39,603 bases of DNA from a virus, in the IMG/VR virus record IMGVR_UViG_3300017931_000004, positions 1 through 39,603 of that record; one strand, written 5' to 3'. The notes below the pieces were generated by a model that saw only the letters and a program-made list of their open reading frames with translations, had not been told where the DNA came from and ran no database searches. Below are positions 7,994 to 37,195 of the stretch, piece after piece. Numbering within the stretch: the first letter of the stretch is position 1; each line of letters begins with the position of its first letter. Both the position numbers and the translations under genes were made by a program.

Positions 7994-8692
7994 ATGGTTA
8001 GACTTAGACAGCAAGCGGAGACGTTTTACGGGACGCCTTCACCACTTACTAGACAAAATCCTACCCCAATATCAGCCAAGAGGGATCCTGTCACATCAGA
8101 TACGGGCTACGCAATTGGTCAACAATGGGTCAACACCGTAGCTGGAACCTGGTTCGGCTTAGCTCGTGTAGCCGCTGGAGTAGCAACGTGGGTATCATTT
8201 GGTACAACCACAGGCTCATTTGCCACAGTTAACGCAGCAACGTTCAATACGACAACCGCAGCGACAGCAATTAGCCTAGCTTCAGGAAATGTCTTTACAG
8301 GAACAGGTACAAACGCGGCAGTTGGGTTTACTTTCACACCTAAAGGCACCGCCGGGCTTACTCTCACCACAGGTACTCTTGCCATTACTAACGGCAATCT
8401 TACCCTGGGTACAGCTGGCAATGGTATCTCTATCAAATCTGGTGCCAATGCACGCATAGGCCAGACAACTCTAGTTCTTGGGACAAAAGCAGTCGCCAAC
8501 ACCTCTGTAACAGCAAACACACGCGTATTTCTAAGCCGATCTAGCAAAGGCGCATCTACAGCACTTGGAGTACTAGAAGCCGTCGTAAACGCTGGCGTTG
8601 GGTTTACAGTCAATTCATATACACCTGCTACAGCCGCGGTAGAGACAAATGACATCTCTGTAATCGACTGGACATTAATAGAATCAGCTTAA
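7994..8692 (+). CDS. Tail appendage protein with N-terminal anchor module (232 aa)
   Basis: ATG 7994 follows GGAG by a few bases; a GTG two codons upstream is less likely. Residues about 35-70 (TGYAIGQQWVNTVAGTWFGL, then AAGVATWVSFG) closely match the N terminus of the protein at 11316-12344. This suggests a shared module that anchors appendages to the tail. The remainder is Thr, Ala and Gly rich beta repeats (TFNTTTAATAISLASGNVFT; GTAGLTLTTGTLAITNG) typical of fibre shafts. It is the first gene of the appendage cassette. The adsorption role is inferred. Confidence 0.65.
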   Translation: MVRLRQQAETFYGTPSPLTRQNPTPISAKRDPVTSDTGYAIGQQWVNTVAGTWFGLARVAAGVATWVSFGTTTGSFATVNAATFNTTTAATAISLASGNVFTGTGTNAAVGFTFTPKGTAGLTLTTGTLAITNGNLTLGTAGNGISIKSGANARIGQTTLVLGTKAVANTSVTANTRVFLSRSSKGASTALGVLEAVVNAGVGFTVNSYTPATAAVETNDISVIDWTLIESA

Positions 8693-30638: not shown

Positions 30639-32681
30639 ATGACTCTTTTTCCTCAGTTGAGCGATTCGTATTATGTTGATAACGATCATAATATTTTAAA
30701 GCTCATGGATTACACGTATTCGAAAAATATAACGATCAATCAGAGCTATTGGACCGAGGCGGATATTGATGCCAGATTTGTCGCTGGTGATCAGACCATA
30801 ATAAACTCTATTTACGGAACTCTACCGAATTTCCAACGTCACCAATTCAATTTTAATAGAATCCGGCGCGTCATCAATATGATAAGCGGCTACCAACGCC
30901 AACATCGTAAATCTACGGTTGTAACCCCAGTAGAAGAGCGAGGTCAAAAAACAGCCGATCAATTCACTAAGCTGATGTACCACATAAATAACAAAGGAGG
31001 TGTGTATGAAACACTCTCTGATGCATTTATGGGGGCTATTTCATGCGGAATGAATTTATTGTCTGTATGGCAAGATTTTAGAACGGATCCGGTAAATGGC
31101 GAAATTAAAGTTGATAATATCGGATATTCTAGTTTCTTGATTGATCCATATTTCAAAAATAGAGATCTATCAGATTGTAATTCGATCTGGACAAGAAAAT
31201 ATCTCTCTCGTACGCAAGTGATGATGCTTCTTCCTGGCCGTTCTGAAGAGATAAAAACAATGACTGGGTACGGGGGACGTGATGGAAAATTTCAGTATCA
31301 GCCAGAGTCATACAATTATGGAAATCAAGATTTAATTATTTACGACGAGTTCTGGTATCTCTCGACGAGAAATCAGACCCTGCTTGTCGATGCGACTAAT
31401 GGTGAAACAATTGAATGGCGTGGACAAGATGACGATCTAAAAGAATTCATGAACATGTATCCTGATGTCGTTAAAATCGAGCAGGAGATACCTACCACAA
31501 AACTTGCCATCGTTGTGCAAGGCAAGGTGATGTACCACGGTCCGAATCCTCTAGGCATAGACAGATATCCATTTGTTCCTGTGTGGGCTTACTACGATCC
31601 AAATATGGCGTATTACCCATGGCGGTGCCAAGGAGTTACTAGAGGACTTCGCGATTCACAATATTTATTTAATCATCGCAGACGTTTAGAGCTAGATCTG
31701 CTCGAGAGTCAAGTAAATTCTGGATGGAAGTATAAAGAAAATGCATTAGTAAACCCTAAAGATGTTTTTATGCAAGGCCAGGGTCGCGGCTTGGCACTCA
31801 AAGCCGAGGCTCAAATGACAGACGTGGAGAAAATTGAGCCAGCACAGGTTCCGCCTTCGATGATTCAGCTTTCAGAGTTGCTAGCGCATGAAATTCAAGA
31901 AATTTCTGGTATAAACGAGGAATTACTCGGTAGTGCCGAAGACGACAAAGCTGGGATCTTGAGCATGCTACGGCAAGCCGCCGGACTTACTACGCTCCAA
32001 ATTCTGTTTGATTATCTAGATCAATCTCAAAAGCTACTCGGAGATATTCAAATTGAGCTCGTTCAATCGAATTGGACTCCTGGTAAAGTACAGCGAATCC
32101 TTGGCGAAGACCCAACAGAAGAATTCTACAATAGGGCATTTGGCAAATACGATGCGATTGTTGAAGAGCAGCCCCTGACGTCTACACAAAAACAATTAGC
32201 TCTTAGACAGGCCCTTTATCTACGTGAGCTCGGAATTCCAGTTCCTACGTCATACCTGATTAAAAACATGAACATCCCAGACAAAGACGAACTAACACAA
32301 GAGATAGCGCAGGCAGAACAAGTCCAACAGCAACAACAAGCTCAAATGGCTCAACTACAAATGCAGCAGTTGCAGGTCGACAATGAGACCAAGCTATCCT
32401 ACTCAGAGGCCCAACATTCCCTCGCGGCTGAACGAATGAATAAGACTCGACTAGATGCAGCCTTGAGTGCGGAACGCATGCAGCGCGCCGATGAAGATCG
32501 TACAGGCGCGGTTTTGAATTTGGTCAAGGCGATCACAGAGATACGTGGCATGGATCTAGAGCACATAGAGCGATCTGTAAACGTCATACGAGAGATAAGC
32601 GAGGAAGAACGATTAATGGCGAACCCTGAATCTAGTAGCCCCAGAGCTACTAAATCCCCAGAGCCCGCCAGAGTTAGTTAA
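30639..32681 (+). CDS. Portal protein, P22-like (680 aa)
   Basis: It forms the dodecameric channel through which DNA enters and leaves the head. The N-terminal part contains INMISGYQRQHRKSTVVTPV and DQFTKLMYHI, the typical P22-type portal opening. It is followed by the wing/stem region and HEIQEISGINEELLGSAED. The C terminus is a long Gln-rich helical barrel-like tail (QQQQQAQMAQLQMQQLQVDN). Length fits P22-type portals (about 700). It starts the virion block. The ribosome binding site before ATG 30639 is weak. Confidence 0.88.
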   Translation: MTLFPQLSDSYYVDNDHNILKLMDYTYSKNITINQSYWTEADIDARFVAGDQTIINSIYGTLPNFQRHQFNFNRIRRVINMISGYQRQHRKSTVVTPVEERGQKTADQFTKLMYHINNKGGVYETLSDAFMGAISCGMNLLSVWQDFRTDPVNGEIKVDNIGYSSFLIDPYFKNRDLSDCNSIWTRKYLSRTQVMMLLPGRSEEIKTMTGYGGRDGKFQYQPESYNYGNQDLIIYDEFWYLSTRNQTLLVDATNGETIEWRGQDDDLKEFMNMYPDVVKIEQEIPTTKLAIVVQGKVMYHGPNPLGIDRYPFVPVWAYYDPNMAYYPWRCQGVTRGLRDSQYLFNHRRRLELDLLESQVNSGWKYKENALVNPKDVFMQGQGRGLALKAEAQMTDVEKIEPAQVPPSMIQLSELLAHEIQEISGINEELLGSAEDDKAGILSMLRQAAGLTTLQILFDYLDQSQKLLGDIQIELVQSNWTPGKVQRILGEDPTEEFYNRAFGKYDAIVEEQPLTSTQKQLALRQALYLRELGIPVPTSYLIKNMNIPDKDELTQEIAQAEQVQQQQQAQMAQLQMQQLQVDNETKLSYSEAQHSLAAERMNKTRLDAALSAERMQRADEDRTGAVLNLVKAITEIRGMDLEHIERSVNVIREISEEERLMANPESSSPRATKSPEPARVS

Positions 32682-36045: not shown

Positions 36046-36202
36046 ATGAGTATTACAACAACGAGTCTTTTAACGGCTCCAGTGCAGACTAGTTTTAGTT
36101 ATAAACTATTGTCTGTAGCTGTCCCGTACATGATCCATAAAATACCAGCCATGTTGAAAAATATGCCTCGTAATGGTGGTACGGACATTAGGTTTAGACG
36201 AT
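36046..36202 (+). CDS. Major capsid protein, N4-gp56-like, exon 1 (codons 1-52 plus one base)
   Basis: The frame starts at ATG 36046 and runs 52 codons to DIRFRR. The unspliced RNA then reads TAG at once. The segment (VPYMIHKIPAMLKNMPRNGG, TDIRFRR) is the conserved N-terminal arm of N4-gp56-family capsid proteins, normally followed directly by YNPLA. That continuation is found at 36405. Exon 1 ends at T36202, the U of a U-G pair in the predicted P1 helix. Alone this would be a useless 52-residue peptide. With exon 2 it makes a 315-residue capsid protein. Confidence 0.85.
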
Positions 36203-36404
36203 AGATTATGTCGTCTATAAATCTTCTCTGATTGACTTGGAAGCCCGACAGGGTGACAGGGCGGAAGCGAAAGCACCGTGATCGACTGAGTGAGAAGACT
36301 CGAAAGAGATGCGACAGTCAGGACAGCGAATATAAATAAAATCGCTGAGGAGTGCTCGAAGAAGCGCTTCCACCAACTATAGTTGGTCATAAGGTAACAG
36401 ATTG
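36203..36404 (+). ncRNA. Group I intron (202 nt, no ORF) interrupting the major capsid gene
   Basis: P1: exon bases 36195-36202 pair with 36210-36217, ending in U36202-G36210 at the splice site. P10: exon 2 bases 36405-36408 pair with 36206-36209. P3: 36222-36228 with 36292-36298, seven perfect pairs. P7: 36284-36288 with 36315-36319, plus U36282-A36320 around bulged C36283, giving a G-C guanosine site. P8: 36299-36301 with 36306-36308, closed by GAAA. J8/7 is six bases. P9-type hairpins follow (36324-36347, 36349-36370, 36372-36387). The intron ends in G36404. P4-P6 lie in 36229-36281 and include GC-rich hairpins, but exact pairing was not settled. It carries no homing endonuclease. Confidence 0.85.
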
Positions 36405-37195
36405 ATAACCCTCTCGCTACGGCTACAGTGCCATTGGGGAATTCCGGGGTATACCCACCTCCTCAAACCCTGAGCGCCTTGAACATCGATGCGAGGATGT
36501 CGTTCTACGGAACGTATGTCCTTCTAAATGAACAAGTTACGCTCCAAGCCCAAGATCCTGTTTTGAACGAAGCGGCTCTTAGGCTAGGCGTGAGCCTTAG
36601 GCAGACGGAGGATGAATTAATTTCTTCGATGCTGAGCTCGACAAGTTCATTTATGAACTGTACAAATGGTAGTGATGGAGACAATCCGACCGAAATCACT
36701 CTTGCCGATATTCAAAACGTAGTTCGCACGTTACGCAATAACAGTGCTTACTCATTTTTATCGGGTATCAGTGGTGAAAATAAATTTGGAACTGCACCAG
36801 TACGCGATGCCTACTTTGCATTAGGGTCTACTCAAATGATCGGGCAAGTAGATAACGTTCAAGGGTTCATCCAGAAGTGGAATTACGCCAATCAGCAATC
36901 TACTCTAGATGCTGAATACGGTTCCGTATCGAACCTACGATTCCTTTTGTCGCCTATTGGTAGCGTAACGCCAAATGCGTCATTACTAGGAAACGACGTC
37001 ATGAACATCTTTTGCGTAGGCCGTGAGGCATATGCGACAGTTGAGCAAGACGGGTATTCAAGTAAATTTATTTATAGACCAGGCATCTATGATGGCCCAT
37101 TGGCTCTTAATGCTTCTATCGGCTGGACTATGGCAACTGTGCCCCGCCTATTGAACGATACTTGGTGTATTAACATGCGCTGTACGTTGGCATAA
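36405..37195 (+). CDS. Major capsid protein, N4-gp56-like, exon 2
   Basis: AT at 36405-36406 completes a Tyr codon with T36202. The frame then reads NPLATATVPLGNSGVYPPPQ and on to TAA 37193-37195, for 315 residues in all. Features of the N4-gp56 family are visible: FRRYNPL at the junction, MSFYGTYVLLNEQVTLQAQD, and later AYFALGSTQMIGQVDNVQGF, VGREAYATVEQDG and IGWTMATVPRLLNDTWCINM. A GTG at 36428 could start a truncated protein, but it lacks a convincing ribosome binding site and would lose the N-terminal arm. Confidence 0.88.

What the first reader, a model, noticed from the sequence alone, without database searches (positions are those of the whole stretch)
36046..37195. Major capsid gene split by a 202-nt group I intron
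Seen in sequence: the capsid frame stops right after codon 52, and the conserved continuation (YNPLA) appears 202 bases later. Splicing T36202 to A36405 restores one 948-nt frame. P1 has the required U-G at the 5' site, the intron ends in G, P10 forms, and P3, P7 (bulged C, G-C pair) and P8 with a GAAA loop can be drawn in the right order. Known: group I introns occur in phage polymerase, nucleotide reductase, lysin and some structural genes. A very short ORF-less one in an N4-gp56-type capsid gene is one I have not met. Production of virions would depend on ribozyme activity.
Basis: partly seen in the sequence, partly recalled or inferred. Interest (0 to 1): 0.92.

Follow-up and report, generated by a model that had tools for sequence, protein, structure and literature searches.

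The report
Self-splicing intron in phage capsid gene
A phage's coat-protein gene is cut by a 202-base RNA insert that should splice itself out, and it belongs to a large, uncatalogued family of such inserts that repeatedly invades phage coat genes and, in relatives, seems to have produced 30-60-base inserts that borrow a neighbour's splicing machinery.

Summary
Confirmed and extended. The N4-gp56 capsid frame stops after codon 52 and resumes 202 nt later. Joining 36202 to 36405 gives 315 codons scoring 143 bits to TIGR04387, against 21.5 and 100.5 for the halves; 80 relatives have the gene uninterrupted. The insert is a group I intron: P1 with U.G, P3-P8 including the P3/P7 pseudoknot, bulged P7, P10 and terminal G are present. 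Rfam RF00028 misses it and all 15 related records tested, but 61 homologues give overwhelming covariation (563 double changes against 168 shuffled). Homology-defined excision ends in G in 79 of 94 capsid introns (14 more are one-base offsets) and also restores a tRNA-Asn. The family is essentially phage-borne, mainly in capsid and ribonucleotide reductase genes; this capsid gene has at least 20 insertion sites. Capsid introns are already known (LittleE, Tuc2009), so the window alone is a new variant. Outside the window, 46 capsid genes carry 29-59-nt core-less micro-insertions that keep the splice guide (P10 covaries, terminal G); their tail pairs, with covariation, with exon abutting P1 of the next full intron. 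This suggests one ribozyme core serving two introns. No RNA evidence was available.

The parts
36046..36202 (+). Exon 1 of the N4-gp56 family major capsid gene (52 codons plus first base of codon 53)
   Evidence: TIGR04387 profile 1-49, 21.5 bits alone; ORF
36203..36404 (+). Group I intron, 202 nt, no ORF; ends in G36404
   Evidence: Model R1 162.4 bits, E 6e-32 (R1 was built from an alignment that includes the window); removal restores frame; covariation
36195..36217 (+). P1: exon 36195-36202 (UAGACGAU) with guide 36210-36217 (GUCGUCUA), U36202.G36210 wobble at the 5' splice site; loop 36203-36209
   Evidence: Sequence; same P1 found by rule in most of 104 family members
36206..36209 (+). P10 guide UUAU, pairs with 3' exon AUAA (36405-36408)
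   Evidence: Sequence; 4 contiguous pairs
36222..36228 (+). P3 5' strand UCUUCUC, pairs with 36292-36298 GAGAAGA
   Evidence: 7 of 7 pairs covary, 99.3% paired
36236..36260 (+). P4 (36236-36239/36257-36260) and P5 (36243-36246/36251-36254) with J4/5 GAA
36261..36279 (+). P6 (36261-36264/36276-36279) with P6a and GAAA loop; site of large ORF inserts in relatives
   Evidence: 5 of 6 pairs covary, 100% paired; inserts
36282..36320 (+). P7: 36282, bulged C36283, 36284-36288 with 36315-36320; guanosine-binding site G36284-C36319
   Evidence: pair next to the bulge occurs as AU, GC, CG, UA; last pair as AU, GC, UA
36299..36308 (+). P8 with GAAA loop (36302-36305)
   Evidence: 3 of 3 pairs covary
36324..36347 (+). 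P9 (36324-36329/36342-36347)
   Evidence: 6 of 6 pairs covary
36349..36387 (+). P9.1 (36349-36356/36363-36370) and hairpin P9.2 (36372-36377/36382-36387)
   Evidence: P9.1 covaries; P9.2 by folding only
36405..37195 (+). Exon 2 of the capsid gene to the stop codon
   Evidence: TIGR04387 100.5 bits for its ORF alone
30639..32681 (+). Portal protein gene upstream (context: head gene module)
   Evidence: phrog_156 E 9e-75

Best explanation
The capsid gene is interrupted by an ORF-less group I intron that removes itself from the late mRNA. A guanosine bound at the P7 G-C pair attacks after U36202 in the P1 U.G helix; the freed exon 1 then attacks after G36404, aligned by P10, so that a 315-residue N4-gp56 capsid protein can be translated. 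The intron belongs to a compact group I family, essentially confined to phages, that Rfam RF00028 does not recognise. Shown: split gene, structure by covariation, splice-site rules across the family. Inferred: that the RNA splices in the cell, and that it needs no protein help.
For: Restored frame and profile score; uninterrupted relatives. Covariation of P3, P6, P7, P8, P9 in 61 homologues, 44 pairs, 0/500 shuffles. P7 bulge with G-C, and the adjacent pair as AU/GC/CG/UA. P1 with U.G at a fixed place in most of 104 members. Homology-defined 3' sites end in G in 79 of 94 capsid introns; 14 more read GC and fit a one-base offset in the 5' site. Excising a relative (L257) with the same U|...G| rule turns a stretch without a recognisable tRNA into tRNA-Asn. 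Homologues split coat and ribonucleotide reductase genes in named phages.
Against: No Rfam match at any threshold. No RNA reads or virion proteomics. No spliced or intron-free copy of this very junction in IMG/VR. J3/4 is 7 nt and P4 only 4 bp as drawn, unlike textbook group I cores (from general knowledge).
Confidence: 0.96

Rival explanations
1. The gene is read through at the ribosome: programmed bypassing (as T4 gene 60) skips the 202 nt.
For: The insert begins near a stop codon and folds strongly (z -4.1).
Against: 202 nt is far longer than known bypasses (about 50 nt, general knowledge); a conserved P3/P7 pseudoknot core with covariation and the U|...G| rule in 93 of 94 introns after one-base correction have no role in bypassing; the same element interrupts a tRNA gene, where translation cannot act.
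Confidence: 0.01
2. Exon 1 is a dead remnant and the capsid protein starts at a downstream start (GTG 36428).
For: A 255-aa ORF starts at GTG 36428 and scores 100.5 bits alone.
Against: The 52-residue exon 1 and the junction add 43 bits; intron structure and guide pairings are intact; relatives keep the full 315 residues.
Confidence: 0.02
3. Assembly artefact or inactive, decaying intron.
For: Single metagenomic contig; no second contig with the same insertion at codon 52 was found.
Against: Every core helix and all splice signals are intact; model score 162 bits is among the best of the family.
Confidence: 0.01

Closest known systems
Group I intron in the major capsid gene of mycobacteriophage LittleE (Pope et al. 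2013, PMC3706429)
   Same: Capsid gene split; U before the 5' site and G at the intron end; splicing shown there by RT-PCR and N-terminal sequencing
   Different: 819-bp insertion with a homing endonuclease ORF, in a different (HK97-like) capsid family; here 202 nt, no ORF, N4-gp56 family
Phage group I introns of T4, Twort, SPO1 and Bastillevirinae (mostly IA; PMC3984707, PMC11878797)
   Same: Phage protein-coding genes incl. ribonucleotide reductase; some with homing endonucleases
   Different: The Bastillevirinae ones were found with RF00028/GISSD models; this family is not found by RF00028, has J7/3 of 3 nt and J3/4 of 7 nt as drawn, and sits mostly in capsid genes. GISSD models could not be run, so its subgroup is open
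Rfam RF00028 Intron_gpI
   Same: Overall fold
   Different: No match at E<=10 for the window, nor at E<=5 for 15 related records
Euglena group III introns and spliceosomal introns (general knowledge), as analogy for the micro-insertions in relatives
   Same: Short introns that have lost their catalytic core and depend on a core supplied from elsewhere
   Different: Those descend from group II; the micro-insertions here carry a group I guide and dock beside a group I intron of the same transcript

Membership tests
Group I intron | U.G pair in P1 at the 5' splice site | tested here: met
   U36202.G36210 in an 8-pair P1; P1 with U.G found by rule in most of 104 members
Group I intron | Core helices P3-P8 in canonical order with the P3/P7 pseudoknot | tested here: met
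   44 named pairs, 563 double changes vs 168 in shuffles
Group I intron | P7 with a bulged nucleotide next to the G-C guanosine-binding pair | tested here: met
   U cGACUG / CAGUC A in the window; G-C invariant in 61
Group I intron | Intron ends in G | tested here: met
   G36404; in 94 introns placed by protein homology 79 end in G and 14 read GC (one-base offset of the 5' site)
Group I intron | P10 between guide and 3' exon | tested here: met
   AUAA/UUAU in the window; at least 3 contiguous pairs in 63 of 94
Group I intron | GTP-dependent self-splicing | not testable with these tools
   needs in vitro transcription
Rfam RF00028 | Covariance-model score above gathering cut-off | tested here: not met
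N4-gp56 family major capsid protein (TIGR04387) | Profile score above 60 bits | tested here: met
   143.1 bits spliced
Group I intron (for the micro-insertions in relatives) | Own catalytic core P3-P8 | tested here: not met
   29-59 nt, no room for a core; only P1, P10 and terminal G are kept, so they may work like one but are not one

The most novel reading that the evidence does not exclude
In relatives of this phage, the capsid gene carries 29-59-nt 'micro-introns' at codon 88 that have lost the catalytic core. They keep the group I guide, and a tail that base-pairs with exon abutting P1 of the next full-length intron. One ribozyme core would then splice both itself and its core-less neighbour: a group I counterpart of dependent, spliceosome-like introns.
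Probability: 0.62. Interest if true: 0.97.

Novelty: new variant of a known kind. Interest (0 to 1): 0.82.

Why it matters
A numerous family of self-splicing introns has been invisible to the standard RNA database, so many phage coat and nucleotide-reductase genes are probably annotated as broken or split. One capsid gene is invaded at 20 or more positions, so virion production in some of these phages depends on several ribozymes acting on one mRNA. If the micro-insertions in relatives are spliced by a neighbour's core, phages would show in progress the step, long inferred for group II introns and the spliceosome, by which an intron loses its own catalyst and depends on another. It can be tested directly in vitro.

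Tried and rejected
Rfam searches of the window (whole and local, E up to 10) found nothing and were at first taken as evidence against group I; the family alignment overturned that (against 43). L081, found by an exact 20-nt core match, has no intron. Weak blastn hits in Synechococcus, Gordonia, Rhodococcus and Staphylococcus phages (E 3 to 9) were set aside. In bacterial genomes the 15-nt pattern is mostly chance: 2 of the first 100 loci are introns, both in Omnitrophota MAG contigs; the remaining 18 loci gave none. Two of 60 micro-insertion pattern hits (L353, L364) are chance. Bypassing for the micro-insertions was considered: the triplets before the landing site do not match the take-off codon GGU, and the tail's partner moves with the position of the next intron. 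A spliced copy of the window junction was sought in IMG/VR and not found. Some site assignments are weak (L164 is a reductase gene, not a capsid gene).

Full report
OBSERVATION. The ORF at 36046 stops straight after codon 52 and the conserved continuation YNPLA starts 202 nt later. The joined 315-residue protein scores 143.1 bits to TIGR04387, the N4-gp56 major capsid family (cut-off 60), and the two halves 21.5 and 100.5; PHROG 1357 'major head protein' agrees. Eighty IMG/VR relatives at 65-77% identity carry the gene with no interruption. The neighbouring genes are head genes (portal phrog_156; terminase further left). The split is real.

IS IT A GROUP I INTRON? Rfam says nothing: no match in the window, even at E up to 10 on 401 bases. 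A distant blastn search nevertheless found related DNA in named phages exactly where genes are split: a P22-type coat gene in MW202674 (annotated as two 'P22 coat protein' CDSs) and a ribonucleotide reductase gene in Roseobacter phage CRP-118 (two CDSs; the paper describing that phage does not mention an intron). A third match is in Desulfovibrio phage 7757, where the upstream exon matches an anaerobic ribonucleoside reductase. Rfam, searched at E up to 5, misses the introns of all 15 related records tested.

STRUCTURE. In 61 aligned members (A1) the named structure P3-P4-P5-P6-P7-P8-P9-P9.1, pseudoknot included, is paired in 92.8% of cells; 563 cells carry changes on both sides against 168 in shuffles (0/500), and sliding the partners drops pairing to 46% or less. 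All seven pairs of P3 and all of P8 covary, and several P6/P6a positions show opposite G-C/C-G orientations. In P7 the pair beside the bulge occurs as A-U, G-C, C-G and U-A, the bulge is C with A-U/U-A and A with G-C/C-G, and the adjoining G-C pair never varies. That is the guanosine site of group I introns. P4 is supported only by one U.G/U-A position. P1 with U.G at a fixed place was found by rule in most members.

SPLICE SITES ACROSS THE FAMILY. Using only homology to the capsid protein to place the 3' site, 79 of 94 capsid-gene introns end in G and 14 more read ..GC, which fits a one-base misplacement of the 5' site. ORF-less members are about 195-278 nt; longer ones reach 879 nt and many of them hold ORFs. 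The P6 loop is one place for such inserts. The ORF in L155 matches an HNH endonuclease PHROG; the ORF in L125 has a LAGLIDADG-like motif by eye only. In Omnitrophota contig L257 the family member lies in a tRNA D-loop: ARAGORN sees no tRNA in the contig, but removing 215 nt with the same U|...G| rule yields tRNA-Asn(GTT) (two other trial 3' sites, 2 and 4 nt further on, also gave a tRNA-Asn call). This independently supports excision at the RNA level and rules out a purely translational explanation for the family.

DISTRIBUTION. Of the first 100 bacterial/archaeal genome loci with the 15-mer, two are introns, whereas most IMG/VR hits are. Host genes, where identifiable: this N4-gp56 capsid (a capsid match in 50 of 98 records), other major head proteins (phrog_283, phrog_9953), class II and anaerobic ribonucleotide reductases. 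In the N4-gp56 gene at least 20 insertion positions are supported by frame restoration, with up to four full introns in one gene. The window's position (codon 52, phase 1) was seen only here. Introns in phage capsid genes as such are known: LittleE, proven, and Tuc2009, cited (PMC3706429). PMC11878797 states that Rfam's seed lacks ID and IE and that phage introns are under-represented, which this family bears out. Its subgroup could not be decided here.

BEYOND THE WINDOW: MICRO-INSERTIONS. In relatives, a 29-59-nt insertion lies at codon 88 (FYG|TYV). The search pattern found 60 contigs, 58 true. A regular expression that does not demand a terminal G gives 48 distinct cases: one is a full intron at the same site (L155) and one is at a contig end (L335), leaving 46 micro-insertions with sequence downstream. 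47 of the 48 end in G, the exception being the full intron L155, whose true end lies further on. Note that the collection scan itself imposed G and GTGCCGTA; the cases met without that scan (L096, L133, L140, L157, L206, and L092, L104, L107, L168) all end in G too. They have no room for a core. They keep (a) a strand GCCGUA pairing with 5' exon UACGGU, U.G at the splice site; (b) a strand pairing with the 3' exon, whose third base pairs as C-G 36, U-A 5, G-C 2, A-U 2, with no exception in 45; (c) a tail pairing with a downstream exon stretch that abuts P1 of the next full-length intron within 2 nt in nearly every case, whether that intron is at codon 97, 104 or 118. Own-tail/own-exon matches beat exons of other loci at the same site (means 8.67 vs 4.28 and 9.97 vs 6.40; permutation p about 0.0002 for codons 97 and 104; for codon 118, n=4, no power), and helix columns hold up to four Watson-Crick types. 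All 14 micro-insertion records searched whole contain family introns; 14 records of 34-39 kb with an uninterrupted capsid gene contain none. I infer that the micro-insertion docks beside the next intron and that this intron's core excises it. This is not shown; ordered excision, bypassing and protein-assisted excision remain possible. No precedent was found in the open-access library, which lacks most subscription papers.

VERDICT. The finding stands as a group I intron of an uncatalogued phage family. On its own locus it is a new variant of a known kind; the family and its micro-insertions raise the interest.

Noticed in passing
L107 531-578 (-), L168 734-780 (+), L104 1112-1183 (+), L096, L140 and about 40 more: 29-59-nt frame-breaking micro-insertions at capsid codon 88 that keep a group I guide (P1, P10, terminal G) but no core, with a tail that pairs, with covariation, with the exon abutting P1 of the next full intron. 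Possible core-less introns served by a neighbour's ribozyme.
   Followed up: yes
L133, L173, L180, capsid codon 118: A 4-nt insertion (TATG, TTCG, TACG) exactly at a known intron site, absent in 151 other matches. In all three the upstream exon pairs 7/7, with a terminal U.G, with exon abutting P1 of the next intron at codon 144; only 1 of 54 genes without the insertion has 7/7. Possibly a 4-nt intron; only three related cases.
   Followed up: partly
L257 about 2675-2960 and L255 (Candidatus Omnitrophota MAG contigs): Members of the same intron family near or in tRNA-Asn(GTT); in L257 the intron is in the D-loop and excision restores a recognisable tRNA. L255 looks similar at its 3' end but was not tested.
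   Followed up: partly
MW202674 16569-18084; OR420741 34084-36157: Coat and ribonucleotide reductase genes annotated as two separate CDSs are one gene split by introns of this family.
   Followed up: partly
L155 about 8070-8640; L125 2663-3166 (-): Endonuclease-like ORFs inside full-length introns of the family: L155 matches an HNH endonuclease PHROG; L125 has a LAGLIDADG-like motif by eye.
   Followed up: partly
L188 2280-2400: A capsid gene with a small insertion near codon 80-88 that may be one or two further micro-insertions with guide-like complementarity.
   Followed up: no
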